Source: Darksidea phi
Taxonomy: Eukaryota; Ascomycota; Dothideomycetes; Pleosporales; Lentitheciaceae
Length of the DNA stretch: 64,000 nucleotides
Direction of reading: 5' to 3'
Assembly (NCBI GenBank): GCA_030770425.1
Contig: JASJFT010000008.1
Span: forward strand, 372,001-436,000
Below the pieces are notes generated by a model. It ran no database searches. It was not told where the DNA came from and worked only from the letters and a program-made list of their open reading frames with translations. Positions 22,583 through 61,435 of this stretch are shown here, piece by piece. Made by a program: the position numbers and the translations under genes. The first letter of the stretch is position 1, and every line of letters starts with the position of its first letter.

Positions 22583-22649
22583 CGAAGGCCTCAGCGACTA
22601 ACCGCTGAGTATAACGCTCCTCAAAATCATTTGCACACTAACTCTCACA

Positions 22650-24154
22650 ATGGCTCCTCATGCGGAAGCCCACGACCACATAGGCGACAGCGATCACGCC
22701 AACGATAGCAATATTAAGTCCAAGATACACTCGTATTCTCAACACTCAGTTGTGCAAAAACCCCAGAAGAAAAAATCACCATCCGACATTATCAATTCTA
22801 TACTCACCTTCCGCAACCCGGATCACCAATTCTGGTGGGAAAAAACCGGATCCCAACTCGCCACATTACTCGACTACGCAGGCTACTCAAAATCAGACCA
22901 ATACAACGAACTACTCTTCTATGGTCTTCATGTCGTCCCCGAGCTAGGTCCTGTGCCGGACGCGAACGGTGACCTACGCTGGCGTAGCCCGCAAACTCCC
23001 GATGGAACACCTCTTGACCTGAGCTGGGAATGGGGTCTTGATGGTAAAGGCGTCATAAGAACTTCCTTCGAGCCCATTGGGCCGCTGGCTGGGACGAAAG
23101 CCGATCCCTTCAACCGATATGAGACAGATGTCTGGATCCGACATCTAGAAGACCAAGGGCTTGTCGCGGGACTCGACCTGGAATGGTATCGCCATTTTAC
23201 GAGTAGTGTGCTGCCGAGCGAATTCGAACGCGTAAGGATGACCGAGAAGTTGAATTTCGAGCTTGCTCCCGTTGCGGGGACGTTCGTGACGCGCGACGTT
23301 GATTTGGTGAAGGGGCCTATCATCAAGATGTATATCTTCCCGGGTTTGAGGGCGCAAGAGCTTGGTGTCTCAAATTTGGAAGTCGCAACGAGGGCAATTC
23401 AAACTCTTCCAGAAGCGCAATACCTGGCTCTCCAACCCAAGCCGATGCTAGACTATCTCCATGAGGCGGCCGTAAAGTGGAGTATGGACGTCGGTATCTT
23501 CTCTTTCGACCTAGTATCCCCGGACAAGTCGCGCATCAAGCTTTACACACGCGCCCCGCATACCACTGTTGAATATCTCATGGACGCACTTACGCTCGGC
23601 GGTAGATATGACCTGTCTATGTACAGTGCTGAAGCGATTGCCGACCTAAAGGATTTCTGGAAGATCTTCATTGGAGATGCCCCGGAAGTTCTTCCCAACA
23701 GCGGAGTGCAGCGTGCCGGCCCGGGTTTTTACTTTACCGTGAAGGCTGGTAAGCCGACGACGCCTAAGGTGTATATCTCACCCGCTTCTTTCTGCAAGAA
23801 CGATGCTGAAGTGATTGCGCGATTGAGAAAATACTTTGAGACAAGAAGAAATGCAGGAAAGATGCTGGCGCAGATGAATAATTATGAGAAAGCTCTCAAG
23901 AGTATATAGTAAGTTGGGAGCCTGGCGTTAGTCCGCAGTACATGCTGACCAATAATAGTGGTACTCAATTCCTTCAAGACCAGTGCGACATACATTTCTA
24001 CGTAAGCTGCGCGCTGCAGAAGGATCAGCTGAGGGTTGTTACGTATTTGTGTCCACAGACACTGTCGCGTGAAATTCAATCGAAGAAGCGTCAATTGGAG
24101 GCGGTCAAGCTTGGGGGTAACCAAGTAGCAAAAAACCGTCGGTTGGAGGAATAG
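22650..24154 (+). CDS. DMATS-type aromatic prenyltransferase, 484 residues
   Basis: Transfers a dimethylallyl (or longer prenyl) group from its diphosphate to an indole or other aromatic ring in secondary metabolism; soluble ABBA-barrel enzyme. Two exons, 22650-23908 and 23959-24154, intron 23909-23958 (GT-AG). The second exon supplies the family's C-terminal strand (IHFYVSCALQKDQLRVVTYL). Landmarks in order: FWWEKTGSQLATLLDYAGYS, ELLFYGLHVVPELGPVP, LSWEW (position of the indole-contacting Glu), the diphosphate-binding Lys-x-Tyr motifs in IIKMYIFPG and RIKLYTRAPHTT, GGRYDLSMY, and GFYFTVKAG...PKVYIS. Length fits the family. A basic 45-residue N-terminal extension (QKPQKKKSPSD) precedes the domain. 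It faces a Zn2Cys6 regulator tail to tail 70 bp away, suggesting a small biosynthetic cluster. Prenyl donor and acceptor cannot be told. Confidence 0.93.
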
Positions 24155-49611: not shown

Positions 49612-49800
49612 CTTCCATACCTTCCATACCTTCCATACCTTCCATACCTTCCATACCTTCCATACCTTCCATACCTTCCATACCTTCCATACCTTCCNNN
49701 NNNNNNNNNNNNNNNNNNNNNNNNNNNNNNNNNNNNNNNNNNNNTACCTTCCATACCTTCCATACCTTCCATACCTTCCATACCTTCCATACCTTCCATG
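49612..49800. repeat. 9 bp minisatellite interrupted by an assembly gap
   Basis: CTTCCATAC is repeated without variation on both sides of a run of 47 N (49698-49744): about nine copies before and about six after. The N run means the true copy number is unknown. All three frames are open through it and give meaningless repeats of Tyr-Leu-Pro, Ile-Pro-Ser or Phe-His-Thr. Confidence 0.97.
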
Positions 49801-50200: not shown

Positions 50201-50342
50201 TTAACACCCCACATAAGATTGATCTGCATGCAATCCAAGTATACTGCAAATCAGACATTCACTGAATTTATCTTACCCGCTTTCAGCCTCGTTTTTCTTT
50301 TCATCCCTTCGTTTGCTTACCACCTACCTGAGCCGCTCAAGA

Positions 50343-52246
50343 ATGACAGATCCCCTATCCATACTTGGGGCAGTTAGTGCGGTTGGAACTATTATCGAGC
50401 TTGTCACTAAAACCATTGATGGAGTGCGCGGAATTCGAGGTCGTTGGAAAGAGGCAGATCTCGCATTCGGCAGCCTTGTATCGCAGCTTATAGCACTCCG
50501 TGCAGCATTCAGCAATATTCAGCAGTGGACGAGTAATAATTTGAGGTACGATCCCGATCAGCAAGTTTTAAAGGACCTTGACGTGTCAATATCCTGTTGC
50601 AAATTGCTCGTGGAGCAGTTCGATACTTTCCTCTCCGATCTTAACCAGCATCCCGACACACCCTTGGATTTTCTAGCAGAATGAAATTCCTTTTTGGAAC
50701 GAAGGATTTAGAGGGAGTCCAGAGAATGGTTGAACGACAAGTAAGCGCCTTGACACTACTGCTCACGGCATTTAACTGGTAATGTATGATCCTACAATAT
50801 CTGAATACAAGCCTCTGATTGCCGCCACGATAGTAGAACCATTTCAGAACAGAAGGCTTTACTTCAAGACCCCAGGTCTAGGAGCATTATCGGACAAGTG
50901 GAGCATGATTCTACCTCGTTGTTTTGTTCATCGCGATTCATCTTCTTTATTCAGTGACCGGACAGACAACCTCTCAAGATTCTCAATTCGTTTCGATTTT
51001 GACAAAGAGCTTTTCGTCACTAGAGTATACGACAAGATATTCCGAGGTTCGGTCAAGGATGCGCTTAAACGGCGGAGGGCATTTCCGCAATAAGGAGAGA
51101 ACGCCTCCCGAGACGGGAACACGACAATGGGGCCGACGGAATAGAATCGATGATAAGAAACGGTCTGACATGATTGACCAAGAACTCCGGAGACACCATA
51201 TTATCTCTCACACCCGACATTACCTCTCTAGTCCCCGGAGATCCTACCAGTGGGAAGGATCGGATCTTGAAACAGATGAAATGTCTGAGTCAAGGTGGTT
51301 ACACTGTGGCAGAGCGGATGCAGTATCAACGTGCCATTCATGAAAATGTCATTGAATGCATCCGGTTTCTGTTAGAAACCATGAGGAAGCAAGATGTTAC
51401 GCCGGACTCAGAGATCAACAACGTTCACTATGTTTTCCTGCTCGGTCATGTCCTTCGTCGAGACCCCGTCAGACCACTCCAAGGCAACATTGGTGATGCA
51501 ATCTACTCGCTATGGAATGATCCCTGTATTCATCAAATACTTGATCGTATCCCTGATCTCGAATCAATGGAGTACGGACGATAGTAAGTACTTCGGTTCT
51601 CATGTATGGGCCGACACTAAATACTTGAAGTTTCGTAAGCAACGTTCAACGAATTACTGCCCCAGGATACATACCCTCCGATGCGGATATACTTCAAGCT
51701 CGCATCAAATCGAACGGTATATATACTACCAGGCTTTGCTAAGGAAAATTGACCTTCCGCCTCTCTACTGCCGACTTGGAGACAGCGTGCAGTGTGAAAT
51801 GGCTCCATCAATTCGAAGACGTACAATCGATCATATTTGCCGTGGACCTGTCATGCTATGATCAACCCACTCTGGACGATCCGTCGAAAAACCGAATGAG
51901 AGAGAACATGGTCTTGTTCGATCGTATTATCAATCTAAACTGGTTCAAGCACACGTCAATCATACTGCTCTTCAACCATGTCAGCATTTTCAAACGAAAA
52001 CTGTCTGTGTAGCCCCTCAGAGACCACTTTCCAGAATTTGCTGGTCGCCATAGTTCCAACGAGGCTGCAGATTTCCTGATGCAGAGCTTTATCCGACTCA
52101 ACCGCATCAATCGCCGGGGTATATATGTTTACTTCACGGATGAAGATGATCGTTTGATCCTGCAGCGTGTGATGGGCGCTCTGAAAGATACGATTGTCAA
52201 CTCTCAGCTTCGCGTTTCTGTGGTTCAAGCGGACATCAATACCTGA
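50343..52246 (+). pseudogene. Decayed G-alpha-like gene with fungal STAND N-terminal domain
   Basis: Begins at an ATG (50343) with MTDPLSILGAVSAVGTIIEL, the N-domain common to fungal STAND/NACHT proteins and fused G-alpha proteins; the frame stops at 50684, while GVQRMVERQVSALTLLLTAF continues it in another frame. After MIDQELRR (frame one) the G-alpha core resumes in a second frame: LVPGDPTSGKDRILKQMK, YTVAERMQYQRAIHENVIEC, then an intron 51584-51639, ITAPGYIPSDADILQARIK, a TAA near 51735, VKWLHQFEDVQSIIFAVDLS, WFKHTSIILLFNHVSIFKRK, a TAG near 52010 and DHFPEF. Nucleotide-binding motifs are lost: P-loop GKS/T reads GKD, switch II DxGGQ is TADLET-like, NKxD reads NHVS. Stops can come from C-to-T changes. 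Non-functional in this sequence. Confidence 0.8.
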
Positions 52247-52618
52247 ATTGGTGGAGAGGGCATTTCAAAAACCATCTACATGACGTAGCACATGGGTAAC
52301 GAACTCAGAAAGAAAGGCTACGCAAAGGGCTCAAAGAGAACGAATGTTTGCTCACAAATTGAAACCGGCGTCTTGAATATCGTTATTAGTTGCCCGATAG
52401 CTGCGCGCTCTCGTCTAGATCAAGCAACATTTATGAATCAAGGATGCTATCACGCCCGGTTCACAGCAGCATGTCTGATTGGTACTCGTGGTTACTCTGA
52501 TCCGCGAGATATATCGAACAATATCACATGTCGGCCATCCCCCGCAGTAACCCTGTTCAATTCCCGGCGACAATATGTAGCCTTCCCGCAATGCGGACGA
52601 GGCCTGGAGATTGTCTGG
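52247..52618. other. Spacer between G-alpha relic and precursor gene
   Basis: Would contain the 3' UTR of the minus-strand precursor gene. No further copies of the precursor repeat are visible here, and no gene was recognised. Confidence 0.45.
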
Positions 52619-52925
52619 CTAGTAACCTTGCTCGGCATACGACGAGTCCTGCTTTTCGCCCACGTTGAGCATTGCGTCGGTTTCAAAGTGGGCTCTCTTG
52701 TATGTTTCGGCATACGAGGACTCGGACTTCTCGCCCACATTCAGCATTTGGTCGGGTTCAAAGTCTTGAACACATTGTTAGATCAAGCGCTATATTTCCC
52801 GTCTACATCTGCTGATAGTAGCGGAACGAAATGGGCCACTTACGACCGGAATGGGCTGTCGGAGCTCCCAAAGTGGGAGCCATCAGGGCTAGCGCAAGCG
52901 CGAGAGTAGTAAGGCGAGTGAGCAT
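52619..52925 (-). CDS. Secreted repeat-peptide precursor, 75 residues (candidate RiPP/Kex2-processed precursor)
   Basis: Two exons, 52844-52925 and 52619-52764; intron 52765-52843 has a perfect GTAAGT donor and CAAG acceptor. Residues 1-20 are a signal peptide (MLTRLTTLALALALMAPTLG). The rest is two near-identical units: HFEPDQMLNVGEKSESSYAE plus TYKRA, and HFETDAMLNVGEKQDSSYAE plus QGY at the end. A Lys-Arg Kex2 site lies in the spacer between the units. Signal peptide, acidic repeats, internal KR and Tyr-containing ends are the layout of dikaritin RiPP precursors and other Kex2-processed repeat proteins. Upstream, divergently, lies a truncated UstYa-like gene, the tailoring enzyme family of such peptides. 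The core peptide cannot be assigned; an ordinary small secreted protein is the alternative. On the opposite strand the repeat creates a false 205-codon frame. Confidence 0.75.
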
Positions 52926-53778
52926 ATTTGCTGATTTAGTGTTGAGAGTGGTCAGGCTGCAAGGTATGTCTTCCGGAGCTTTGTTCGTTGTGGGTTGGGA
53001 ATAAGCAAGCTGTGTGCGCCGTTCAGACGACACTCTCTTATACTTTATGATGTTCCACTTCCATGACCAAGGTAGCTCAAAGATTAGGGGACAGGACTAA
53101 CACACCCCCCATTTGAGGGTGAATGCTCTACACTACGCCTAATATGGACGCTCTTTTCTAGATAGATAGTAGGAGCCCATCTAAGTGGTGTACGTATATT
53201 ATGGTATATTGTTCAGAAAAATAAAAGGCAAAGGTGCATGAAAGGCGATAAGCCGTTGTCGAATCGTGAGTCTCATCTACTGCACGATAGCTTGCGAGGA
53301 TCCCCACAAGCCCTACCTTCCCCGCTTCGCTATCAATATGTTTGCCTCTTTTAATTAAACTTGATCATGAGCACAACTTGGGAGTGGCATGTGCAGGTGT
53401 CAACTGGTGGGATATAGCTGCTTGCCTCCTTGTACCCCACCTTCTCCATTCAAATACTAATACCAAACACGTCATTGATATAATGAACTATCGCGTCAAA
53501 CACCCTCTCGGTCCTGAACTAGGGGGATCATTATCCGAATGCATGTGACATGATGTGTCCGGCAGTTGGATGGCAAGACAGTCATACTATGAGCAGGCAT
53601 GTGAATAAAGTCCGTTCTTTAAAAGTGGGGATACCTGATAACCTCATTACGAACCTAAGCTGTGAACCTATCTCCTAGTGCTCAGTCCAAACTTTATAAG
53701 CTCTTTATATTCGAACTAGTGCCTTCGTTCATCCTCGCCTCGTCTGAACAGGTTGGAATCACCGCAATTCTCGTCACC
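52926..53778. other. Shared divergent promoter region of precursor and UstYa-like genes
   Basis: 853 bp between two divergent start codons. A TATA-like element for the minus-strand gene is at 53035-53042. No coding frame is supported. Confidence 0.45.
53035..53042 (-). promoter_or_regulatory. TATA-like box of the precursor gene
   Basis: TATAAGAG on the minus strand, 110 bp upstream of the precursor ATG at 52925. Confidence 0.45.
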
Positions 53779-54210
53779 ATGTTCCGCAAACCTGTCTACA
53801 CAGTGCTCTCTATGAAAGAATCTACTGAATCTAGTGCAGCGCTTCTGAACGATGCTCATTTTCTTCGTGCGGAGAGGCATAGCAAGCTCTGCAAGCGGTT
53901 GCATTGGATCATTCACGTTCTCGCTTGCCTCATCATCGGCGTAATGTCCATCGGCCTATATTCAGCTACGCAGACGAGCCGGACCAAATGCTGGGACATG
54001 TTCAATTATTATTGTAAGATATCGCTAGCCACAAGGAAACAAATAAGCTGACTTTCGGGAACTACGTTTGCAGCCCCCGTGAATGAGGCAGTCACTTCAC
54101 ATTCGTATGTTCACCAAGTCTTCAATGGCTCGCTCTGGAACAAGAATCCTTTCAAAGGACCACCAACGGAGGAGGTTGAGAAGGCGTGGTATGATATTTA
54201 TGAAATGTGA
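53779..54210 (+). pseudogene. Truncated UstYa-like (DUF3328) oxidase
   Basis: UstYa-family proteins carry out oxidative cyclisation in fungal dikaritin RiPP pathways and related metabolite pathways. Exons 53779-54013 and 54074-54210, intron 54014-54073 (GT-AG), giving at most 123 residues against about 230-270 for the family. Visible: a cytoplasmic N terminus, one membrane segment (LHWIIHVLACLIIGVMSIGL), and the lumenal opening SPVNEAV, HQVFNGSLWNKNPFKGPP, TEEVEKAWYDIYEM, which is typical of DUF3328. The frame then ends (TGA 54208-54210), and splicing the possible GTGAGC donor at 54207 to the next acceptor does not restore the family. The two catalytic HxxHC motifs are absent from the following DNA; instead the tail of a 7TM gene begins by 54285. 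Most likely a deletion relic; a functional short protein is unlikely. Confidence 0.78.
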
Positions 54211-54284
54211 GCATAATCACCGCGTCCTGAAGTGTTATTTTTGGGGTGGAAGATCCTTTAACCAACTGACACAGCCTTGTGTAG

Positions 54285-54961
54285 GTATGGCGCCTCCAGC
54301 TCGACCTAAAGCACAAGATAGCAGTCACAGTCGTCTTCCTTCTGGGTGGCTTGTCCGCCTCCCTCCAACCTGCTCCGTAGACCATGCTAACTCTCTTTCA
54401 GCGTCTTCGTCGCCAGCCTCAACAATGCCATTGTTCAGCTCGTCTACCTCACCGACCCCGGTATTGCCAACAAGGAGAGCGGTGCCAATTTCTTCCAAGG
54501 TATATTATGTGGAGGCGACCCTTGTTCCACCTTTATATCAAGCTTTCATCATTTACATTTCCCGCTGACTGTAAACAGGATCTTCTATCCTTTTCTCGAA
54601 CTGGCCCGCTATCGAGGTTGGCGTTGGCTTGCTTGCGTCCAACCTCCCACACCTTTCCTTTCGGATGGCGCGGGCGATTCGAGATTGCCTTCCCTCTGCG
54701 CTGCTCAGCAAATTTCGACATGAGACACCGGCGCACTCTAATGAACCCAAGATTAAGCGACCGTCCGGCCAAGAGGCGCACCAGGGACAGGGCGAGTACG
54801 AAGAAAGAACGGAGAGAGAGCATGTGTTGTGGCAAGATGAGGCTTCCAGAGGCGAGCGCATGGCGATATCCAGATCGTTGGGGCATAGCTCAGGGTGGAG
54901 CACGGATATGATCGAGCTGCGGGAGGTTGGGGGGAGCAAAATCGGTGAACAAGCGGTGTAG
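54285..54961 (+). pseudogene. C-terminal fragment of a fungal rhodopsin-domain (PTH11-related) 7TM protein
   Basis: Three exon pieces, 54285-54352, 54402-54499 and 54579-54961, spliced by GT-AG introns 54353-54401 and 54500-54578, encode about 182 residues in one frame. The text VWRLQLDLKHKIAVTVVFLL, GGFVFVASLNNAIVQLVYLT, FSNWPAIEVGVGLLASNLP is the TM5-TM7 part of the fungal rhodopsin-domain family of integral membrane proteins, followed by a hydrophilic cytoplasmic tail ending RSLGHSSGWSTDMIELREV. TM1-TM4 and the start are missing: upstream sequence is the truncated UstYa-like gene. No in-frame ATG precedes the fragment. It is therefore a 5'-truncated gene joined to a 3'-truncated one. Confidence 0.78.
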
Positions 54962-55428: not shown

Positions 55429-56628
55429 ATGGTCCAAAGCGCCACACCTGATGCACCTATCCTTATTATCGGCGCCGGCATAGCGGGCCTCACATTAGCC
55501 CAGGGTCTCCGCCTCCGCTCGATCCCCTTCCGCGTCTTCGAGCGTTATCCCCACTCGCACAGCTCCCAAGGCCACCGCTTCCGCATCTCAGCAAATGGAC
55601 AGGCAGCCCTCACTAGCGTGCTATCTCCCCATTTGCGAACCTTGCTGCGCCAAACTGCGGCCGAGCGCCACTGCTTCGAGCCGCGATATGTCGATGCCCG
55701 GAGCCTCAACTTTGCGACGCCAACGCCCGTGGATCCGGAAACGACACCTGCACTGCCCGTGGACAGGACGTGGGTCCGCATGCTTACAATGCTGGACATA
55801 GACGATGCGATCGAGTACGAGAAGGACTTCTCGGCGTACGAGATAGTGGATGGGCGCGTGCATGCCCGCTTTGCAGACGGCTCGACGGCTTGCGGAGGGC
55901 TGCTCGTCGGCGCCGATGGGGTCAAGAGCCGGGTGCGTAAGCAGTTGCAGCCGAACCGTCGGCTGCTTGATCTGGAGCGCTGGATTATGTGGGGCCGGAC
56001 CTCCCTGACCGAGTCGCTGAAGCAGAAGCTGCCGCCGGATCTGCTCACCTGGTGCATGTATCTGGACCGTGAGGCCAATGTCCAGGCTGTCGTAGAGCCT
56101 ATGACATGGGCGAAGAGCGTGCGGGCAGAGTCAAACGGCACTTTGCCCGACTTTCCGGACTACGTGTACTGGGTCATTTGTACGGCATCGCGCCAGGGCG
56201 CGGACCTCATGCCCCAGACGGTAGAGCAGAAACGGCGATTTCTTGGGAATGTGACGCAGACTTGGGATCCAGCTCTGCAGCTTCTGTTTAATTCGGCCGA
56301 GCACCATCTGCTTGCTTGCGCACCCGTGTATTCAAGCAAGCCCGACATTGAGGTGTGCGCTACGGGCCAGAAGGGGCGAGTTACGCTTGTTGGGGATGCG
56401 GCACACGCAATGAGTCCGATGGGTGGTTCCGGTGGCGATACGGCCATTCGCAACGCAGCAGACCTGGTGCAGACCATTGCTGAACAAGGCATTACGGCAG
56501 ACACAATCGCAGGCTTTGAAGCGAGGATGGAAGAAAGGGCAAGAGAGAGAATCGAGCACTCGTTCATCGGTGGAAAGAAGTACTGGCGCGGGAAGGACTG
56601 GACCGAGTATAGTGAAAGTAATGTGTGA
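55429..56628 (+). CDS. FAD-dependent monooxygenase (PheA/TfdB-type), 399 residues
   Basis: Group A flavoprotein hydroxylase of aromatic or secondary-metabolite substrates, using NAD(P)H. Single exon from the ATG at 55429. The dinucleotide-binding motif is at the start (ILIIGAGIAGLTLAQGL, Gly15, Gly17, Gly20), ending with the acidic residue in FRVFERYP. The DG motif is in LLVGADGVKSRVRKQL and the second FAD motif GD in VTLVGDAAHAMSPMGGSGG. Length matches fungal members that lack a C-terminal thioredoxin-like domain. No signal or membrane segment. It lies 1.2 kb downstream of the UstYa-like and rhodopsin fragments and 2.5 kb from the precursor gene; dikaritin loci often hold flavin enzymes, but the family is also very common elsewhere. 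No defect is seen. Confidence 0.92.
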   Translation: MVQSATPDAPILIIGAGIAGLTLAQGLRLRSIPFRVFERYPHSHSSQGHRFRISANGQAALTSVLSPHLRTLLRQTAAERHCFEPRYVDARSLNFATPTPVDPETTPALPVDRTWVRMLTMLDIDDAIEYEKDFSAYEIVDGRVHARFADGSTACGGLLVGADGVKSRVRKQLQPNRRLLDLERWIMWGRTSLTESLKQKLPPDLLTWCMYLDREANVQAVVEPMTWAKSVRAESNGTLPDFPDYVYWVICTASRQGADLMPQTVEQKRRFLGNVTQTWDPALQLLFNSAEHHLLACAPVYSSKPDIEVCATGQKGRVTLVGDAAHAMSPMGGSGGDTAIRNAADLVQTIAEQGITADTIAGFEARMEERARERIEHSFIGGKKYWRGKDWTEYSESNV

Positions 56629-60902: not shown

Positions 60903-61064
60903 GCTGGGTGGCGAACGCCTGTCACGTTAAATGGAATGATCGTTGGTTTGTTCGTTGACCTGGTGGAGTATTGAATACGCCATCAGCAGCATCACCGGCT
61001 TCTCGTTGCCACGGCGCGAAATGCACATCATCGCCTACTCGTCACAGCAGCCTCCTAAATATGG

Positions 61065-61073
61065 TATATAAAG
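61065..61073 (+). promoter_or_regulatory. TATA box of the cysteine-rich secreted protein gene
   Basis: TATATAAAG, about 100 bp upstream of the ATG at 61172, followed by a C-rich and pyrimidine-rich leader typical of highly expressed fungal genes. Confidence 0.65.
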
Positions 61074-61171
61074 CCCTCTATCCAACACTACACCCATCTC
61101 CCCAAAATACTCCCCCTTCGCACTATTACTTCAGCTTCGACTCCTTAATACCACAACGAACGACCACCATT

Positions 61172-61435
61172 ATGAAGGCTCCCATCTTCCGCCTCCTCGC
61201 TTTCCTAGCCCTCTTCGCCTTCCTCACCCCTACACTCGCCTGTAAATGCCTCGACCATGCGGGTGGCGGCCACCACACTGATATCACGGAGACATGCTGC
61301 CGTGAGGCTCGTGGCAAAATGGTCAAAGGCCCAGACTGCAGTGCCCACTCCATGTCGAATTCCTTGAGCGCTTTCGCCCAATGTTGCGCTCGGCTGTCTA
61401 AGAAATCGGATTGTAGATGTCCGATTAGCTGCTAG
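61172..61435 (+). CDS. Small cysteine-rich secreted protein, 87 residues
   Basis: Single exon starting at the ATG at 61172. Residues 1-23 are a textbook signal peptide (MKAPIFRLLAFLALFAFLTP, cut after TLA). The mature 64 residues hold ten cysteines in the order C-x-C, CC, C, CC, C-x-C, C (ACKCLD, ETCCREARG, PDCSAHS, AQCCARLS, DCRCPISC at the C-terminal end). An even number of cysteines points to about five disulfides. A strong TATA box and C-rich leader suggest regulated high expression. I do not recognise the family; this layout is common among effectors and small antimicrobial-type proteins of plant-associated fungi. No defect is seen. Confidence 0.85.
   Translation: MKAPIFRLLAFLALFAFLTPTLACKCLDHAGGGHHTDITETCCREARGKMVKGPDCSAHSMSNSLSAFAQCCARLSKKSDCRCPISC

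What the first reader, a model, noticed from the sequence alone, without database searches (positions are those of the whole stretch)
52619..54210. Candidate fungal RiPP locus: repeat-peptide precursor next to a UstYa-like gene
A 75-residue protein assembled from two exons has a signal peptide, two near-identical 20-residue units (HFE-D-MLNVGEK--SSYAE) and a Lys-Arg Kex2 site between them. It is divergent from a DUF3328/UstYa-like gene, and an intact FAD monooxygenase lies 2.5 kb away. Precursor, UstYa protein and flavin enzyme are the hallmark combination of dikaritin pathways (ustiloxin, phomopsin, victorin). The repeat sequence is not one of the known cores I recall. Because the UstYa copy here is truncated, this may be a relic, or the working oxidase may sit elsewhere.
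Basis: partly seen in the sequence, partly recalled or inferred. Interest (0 to 1): 0.88.

Follow-up and report, generated by a model that had tools for sequence, protein, structure and literature searches.

The report
Orphaned two-unit secreted peptide gene
A filamentous fungus carries a small gene for a secreted protein built of two similar peptides joined by a cutting site, next to the broken remains of an enzyme gene of the kind that ties such peptides into rings, so the peptide gene looks like what is left of a known type of peptide pathway.

Summary
On the minus strand, 52925-52619, two exons around a predicted phase-1 intron (52843-52765) encode 75 residues: a signal-peptide-like start, two 20-residue units (16 of 20 identical) and one Lys-Arg between them. 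The units differ by 5 synonymous and 4 replacement codons (dN/dS about 0.2). One 42-residue relative from another assembly keeps the Lys-Arg, unit 2 and most of unit 1. The divergent gene is a real UstYa/DUF3328 piece, but only profile 5-94 of 220; it has no HxxHC motif and runs into a probable Fung_rhodopsin tail. The genome has 22 UstYa sites; of the 21 others, 3 have a repeat precursor with a full gene model by a fixed rule, and 2 more by eye. The flavin monooxygenase is a widespread fungal protein and no sign of a cluster. Best reading: a decayed ustiloxin-type pair, precursor open, enzyme lost locally; any product now is linear or modified by an enzyme encoded elsewhere. It fails the two-HxxHC criterion for a dikaritin enzyme and the three-repeat criterion for a KEP, so I file it in neither family. 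Moderate interest.

The parts
52844..52925 (-). precursor exon 1: start codon and signal-peptide-like sequence (MLTRLTTLALALALMAPTLGAPTAHSG)
   Evidence: signal peptide judged by eye and by hydropathy, SignalP not available
52765..52843 (-). predicted phase-1 intron, 79 nt, GTAAGT...TTCAAG
   Evidence: predicted, no transcript data
52619..52764 (-). precursor exon 2: unit 1 with tail (HFEPDQMLNVGEKSESSYAETYKR), unit 2 with tail (AHFETDAMLNVGEKQDSSYAEQGY), stop
   Evidence: relative P0001
52694..52699 (-). Lys-Arg (AAGAGA) between the units, candidate Kex2 site
   Evidence: read from the sequence; kept in P0001
52926..53778 (.). 853-bp divergent region; TATAAG 117 nt before the precursor ATG and 84 nt before the UstYa ATG; TCGTCTGAAC at 53021-53030 (-) and 53740-53749 (+), each pointing at its gene
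   Evidence: the 10-mer occurs only at these two places in the window (0.14 expected, 1 of 100 shuffles has two or more)
53779..54013 (+). truncated UstYa/DUF3328 gene, exon 1 with a membrane-like stretch
   Evidence: no Pfam match on its own
54074..54209 (+). truncated UstYa gene, exon 2; domain similarity ends here (profile 5-94 of 220 for the whole match)
54297..54961 (+). 3' part of a probable Fung_rhodopsin (PF20684) gene, foreign to the UstYa gene; junction lies between 54209 and 54297
   Evidence: profile 165-232 of 237, E 3.9e-4, 20.5 bits, below the curated cut-off of 27
55429..56628 (+). intact FAD-dependent monooxygenase, 399 aa; neighbour, probably not part of the pair

Best explanation
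This is a ustiloxin-type pair, precursor plus UstYa-like oxidase, in decay. The 75-aa precursor has a signal peptide and enters the secretory path (inferred from sequence). Kex2 cuts after the single Lys-Arg to give two peptides, about 22-28 and 24 residues, with the shared pattern HFE-D-MLNVGEK--SSYAE and a second Tyr in each tail (inferred). In the ancestor a UstYa-like membrane oxidase from the divergent gene modified them, probably at tyrosine (inferred from the family). A rearrangement joined the first part of that enzyme gene to the tail of a probable rhodopsin-domain gene, so the part of the domain with the HxxHC motifs is missing (shown in the sequence) and this enzyme cannot work (inferred). 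The precursor frame is still open (shown). Today the peptides are most likely not made or are secreted linear; modification by another UstYa protein of the genome is possible.
For:: open spliced frame, two units, Lys-Arg, dN 0.149 against dS 0.725 between units; one relative, 37 of 42 residues identical, Lys-Arg kept. UstYa match over the cut-off, profile 5-94 of 220; no HxxHC on the + strand from 53779 to 54961, while 20 of the 22 other UstYa stretches (L014-L035) show at least one at or near the UstYa match by my reading. Fung_rhodopsin tail; precursor with full gene model at 3 of 21 other UstYa sites (L016, L018, L029), 0 in the rest of the window and L036-L038 besides the gene in question, 0 in 928,092 resampled bases. 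L029 has a phase-1 GTAAGT intron in the same place; L018 has two units and one Lys-Arg; in 4 of the 5 by-eye cases precursor and nearest UstYa match are divergent; a 10-mer shared by both promoters. [quoted passage not shown] repeats of such KEPs hold Tyr more often (65.6% against 38.2%).
Against: Enrichment of precursors near UstYa genes is not shown for this genome: raw scan rows are as frequent elsewhere (4 in 94,000 bases besides this gene, against 10 in 215,364 bases near UstYa), and the gene-model counts (3 against 0) are too small to decide. In plain six-frame reading 4 of the 5 by-eye precursor sites (L016, L020, L029, L034) show only one HxxHC, not two (introns may hide one). Only two units here. 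No transcript data. No sequence similarity to other precursors of the genome (for L018). No relative of the locus with an intact UstYa could be shown: the UstYa exon search admitted only proteins of 43-136 aa by the tool's length rule and could not find full-length relatives. The 10-mer was found after the fact; about 0.35 exact inverted 10-mer pairs are expected in 853 bp (my estimate). The Fung_rhodopsin match is below its cut-off. The junction could be an assembly error.
Confidence: 0.62

Rival explanations
1. The precursor is still used and its peptides are modified in trans by one of the other UstYa proteins encoded elsewhere in the genome.
For: 21 other UstYa sites in the genome; open precursor frame and constrained repeat.
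Against: No close paralogue of this UstYa: exon 1 finds only itself, exon 2 finds itself and one weak match (36%, E 0.08).
Confidence: 0.13
2. The protein is an ordinary linear secreted repeat peptide (hormone- or effector-like), and the UstYa fragment beside it is coincidence.
For: Most KEPs have no DUF3328 neighbour (6120 of 7878). Raw repeat-scan rows are not more frequent near UstYa genes in this genome.
Against: Divergent adjacency at 853 bp, similar layouts at other sites of this genome, shared promoter 10-mer, Tyr in each unit.
Confidence: 0.15
3. The junction at 54209-54297 is an assembly error and the real locus holds a complete UstYa gene.
For: Draft assembly of 477 contigs with a gap about 4.5 kb away at 49698-49744.
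Against: No other place on this contig matches UstYa at E <= 0.001, and the tandem-repeat scan shows no repeat at the junction.
Confidence: 0.08

Closest known systems
Ustiloxin/phomopsin/asperipin-2a type fungal RiPPs (dikaritins)
   Same: Signal-peptide-like start, repeated units with Tyr, Lys-Arg between units, divergent UstYa-like gene.
   Different: Two units only; enzyme truncated without HxxHC motifs; no tyrosinase or methyltransferase seen nearby; unit unlike the EDYXI core that PMC6339444 gives for ustiloxins and phomopsins.
Kex2-processed repeat proteins (KEPs; Umemura 2020, Le Marquer 2019)
   Same: Signal-peptide-like start plus similar units at a dibasic site.
   Different: Two units, where Umemura requires at least three; the unit is not among the core sequences printed in section 10 of PMC6339444.
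Precursor-like gene at G000:C2 (L018:1872-2147) of the same genome
   Same: Signal-peptide-like start, two units, one Lys-Arg, UstYa genes nearby; a phase-1 intron model gives 74 aa.
   Different: No sequence similarity; its frame is also open without the intron, 92 aa, so the intron is unproved; nearest UstYa match is convergent; UstYa genes there show HxxHC motifs.

Membership tests
Dikaritin (UstYa-type RiPP) locus | Secreted precursor with repeated core/recognition units and Kex2 sites | tested here: met
   two units, one site; signal peptide by eye and hydropathy only
Dikaritin (UstYa-type RiPP) locus | DUF3328 enzyme with two HxxHC motifs (criterion as given in PMC12048977, section 23) | tested here: not met
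   none on the + strand 53779-54961; only profile 5-94 of 220
Dikaritin (UstYa-type RiPP) locus | Tyrosinase, methyltransferase, several DUF3328 genes, transporter or peptidase (older five-gene definition, PMC12048977) | tested here: not met
   Not seen among the 38 entries given to Pfam, a choice from the 78 frames of 130 aa or more plus some shorter ones; a sugar transporter lies 39 kb away
Dikaritin (UstYa-type RiPP) locus | Side-chain cyclised product | not testable with these tools
   needs mass spectrometry
KEP (Umemura 2020) | At least 3 tandem repeats of 8 aa or more between Kex2 sites | tested here: not met
   Two repeats; criterion read
KEP (Umemura 2020) | Signal peptide by SignalP | not testable with these tools
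   Hydrophobic start (best 9-residue hydropathy mean 2.7)

The most novel reading that the evidence does not exclude
Two-unit, single-Lys-Arg precursors beside UstYa genes are a recurrent minimal class (this locus with its relative P0001, and L018) that surveys asking for three or more repeats pass over; and here the precursor has outlived its own enzyme and works as a linear peptide or through a UstYa enzyme encoded elsewhere.
Probability: 0.18. Interest if true: 0.5.

Novelty: new variant of a known kind. Interest (0 to 1): 0.35.

Why it matters
It adds a unit sequence that I found in no paper searched to a peptide type whose units are very diverse, suggests that precursors with only two units occur beside UstYa genes, and gives a case in which a precursor frame stays open although its enzyme gene is broken. 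The genome as a whole, with 22 UstYa sites and several repeat precursors near them, is a richer source of such peptides than this one locus.

Tried and rejected
The flavin monooxygenase as pathway enzyme: rejected as non-specific; its best solved relative is 4hb9, 'similarities with probable monooxygenase', and the 25 of 61 NCBIfam matches shown are far below their cut-offs. Synteny with the 17,834-base contig of P0001: no row among the 120 listed relatives of the flavin protein has that longest-contig length, which decides nothing. Relatives of the precursor in viral contigs and GTDB genomes: none, as expected for a fungus. Published mention of the unit: all 20 papers found for MLNVGEK, LNVGEK or SSYAE hold SSYAE only, and by titles and abstract starts none concerns fungal peptides. 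Repeat-induced mutation as cause of the decay: indices for 52-56 kb do not show it (TpA/ApT 0.66-0.80; CpA+TpG over ApC+GpT 1.27-1.34). Scan rows set aside by eye: window 11333, 62220 and 8695; L020:9538, L024, L033, L037 and two antisense rows (L016, L034). Odds changed for that reason: best explanation 0.66 to 0.62, coincidence rival 0.12 to 0.15, novel case 0.20 to 0.18. Natural control regions could not be fetched; the controls are resampled sequence, the rest of the window and L036-L038 (two of these flank the C2 UstYa cluster).

Full report
Observation. Searches give, on the minus strand, exon 1 52925-52844, intron 52843-52765 and exon 2 52764-52619, together 75 codons plus stop. The intron is 79 nt, phase 1, with a GTAAGT donor and a CAAG acceptor; I read a TCTAAC branch-like sequence before the acceptor in the intron printed. 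Splicing makes the first codon of unit 1 CAC, identical to that of unit 2. The two DNA copies are 58 nt, 81% identical, 75 nt apart. Of 20 codon pairs 11 are identical, 5 synonymous and 4 replacement; Nei-Gojobori dS 0.725, dN 0.149. These are small numbers, but they fit a peptide under constraint.

Relatives of the precursor. A search of 5.8 billion proteins, which hold many annotated fungal proteins (names), found one relative at E <= 1 among 4 candidates: P0001, 42 aa from an ENA contig of 17,834 bases. It begins at the Met inside unit 1 and keeps the rest of unit 1, the Lys-Arg and unit 2, with 37 of 42 residues identical. The held genome has no second copy at E <= 10. Scans of viral and GTDB contigs found none. 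All 20 papers holding MLNVGEK, LNVGEK or SSYAE matched SSYAE only; by titles and abstract starts none concerns fungal peptides. Small spliced genes are easily missed by annotation, so absence from the protein set says little.

The divergent gene. PF11807 (UstYa) matches at 53872-54210 (contig 425872-426210) with 29.6 bits over the cut-off of 25, profile 5-94 of 220; the second exon alone gives 24.4 bits. No HxxHC is encoded on the + strand from 53779 to 54961. Between 54209 and 54297 the sequence passes into what looks like the 3' part of a Fung_rhodopsin gene (profile 165-232 of 237, E 3.9e-4, under the curated cut-off). The enzyme gene is therefore a fragment. Neither exon has a close paralogue in the genome.

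The same genome elsewhere. One search lists 31 UstYa matches at 22 sites. I fetched 10 kb around each of the 21 others (5.4 kb for one). A scan for repeated units with a dibasic site between them gave 10 rows in these 215,364 bases, against 3 in 646,092 resampled bases. By eye 5 of the 21 sites hold precursor-like genes: L016 (C452, three units), L018 (C2, two units), L020 (C59, Gly-rich, the least clear), L029 (C17, three units) and L034 (C426, three units; its likely signal-peptide exon carries a stop codon). Because this was a judgement, I repeated it with a fixed rule that also asks for a signal-peptide start, directly or over one intron: it kept L016, L018 and L029 near UstYa genes, kept the window gene, kept nothing else in 94,000 bases of window and L036-L038, and nothing in 928,092 resampled bases (1 row). 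The raw rows, however, were as frequent outside UstYa neighbourhoods (4 besides this gene in 94,000 bases), so enrichment near UstYa genes is not demonstrated here and rests on the published survey.

Anatomy compared. L018 has two units and one Lys-Arg; a phase-1 GTAAGG intron gives 74 aa, but its frame is also open without it (92 aa). L029 has a phase-1 GTAAGT intron before its first unit; L016 reads as one exon. The window precursor and L018 have no detectable similarity. In 4 of the 5 by-eye cases (not L018) precursor and nearest UstYa match are divergent, as in the window; I did not test whether other genes lie between. At L016, L020, L029 and L034 only one HxxHC shows in plain six-frame reading; a second may be split by an intron or absent.

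Promoter region. The 853 bp between the two start codons hold a TATAAG 117 nt before the precursor ATG and 84 nt before the UstYa ATG, and a perfect 10-mer TCGTCTGAAC directed at each gene, which occurs nowhere else in the window nor in L014-L038 (the four loci listed there are overlapping copies of this same locus). It was noticed after the fact and is a lead only.

Neighbours. The flavin protein at 55429-56628 has at least 307 relatives at E <= 1e-20; the 120 listed are 57-78% identical. The two closest named ones are from Lophiotrema nucula and Melanomma pulvis-pyrius, so the fungus may be one of the Pleosporales (Lophiotrema; Melanomma recalled). A protein so widespread gives no support for a shared pathway. 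Other neighbours: a G-alpha-like gene in pieces, DUF7357, HET and Kelch genes.

Judgement. Umemura (PMC7329392; [quoted passage not shown] Each unit here has one Tyr and each tail another. This fits a former precursor-UstYa pair. The strict criteria are not met: two repeats, not three; no HxxHC (criterion). So I say that it worked like a ustiloxin-type pair, and do not file it as a dikaritin locus or a KEP. Le Marquer (PMC6339444) was read in the abstract and sections 10 and 16; the lichen paper PMC12048977 in passages and section 23. Other papers were seen in listings only.

Noticed in passing
L018:1872-2147 (G000:C2): Two-unit, one-Lys-Arg precursor-like gene (74 aa spliced or 92 aa unspliced) in a stretch with three UstYa matches within 8 kb.
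   Followed up: partly
L029:7058-7363 (G000:C17) and L016:6436-6705 (G000:C452): Precursor-like genes with three units (VVGNLWHAKDDHKR type; LNSRFAKYQAEKR type) divergent from UstYa matches.
   Followed up: partly
L034:8916-9152 (G000:C426): Three-unit DADDLINNVWSESNP repeat near a UstYa match; by eye the likely signal-peptide exon carries a stop codon, so perhaps another relic.
   Followed up: no
L020:7230-7547 (G000:C59): Gly/Lys-rich repeat with KR and RR sites (KGLGALFGANKR type) near a UstYa match; no gene model found by rule.
   Followed up: no
window 22602-23906 +: Tryptophan dimethylallyltransferase (PF11991, E 3e-84), 30 kb from the finding.
   Followed up: no
window 50313-52300 +: G-protein alpha-like gene in separate frames (PF00503 on two pieces), perhaps intron-rich or degraded.
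   Followed up: no
window 49612-49799: 9-bp minisatellite (CTTCCATAC / TACCTTCCA) interrupted by an assembly gap 49698-49744.
   Followed up: no
window 60959-61432 +: Frame with a small cysteine-rich, signal-peptide-like protein weakly matching DUF5948 (E 0.0014, below cut-off).
   Followed up: no
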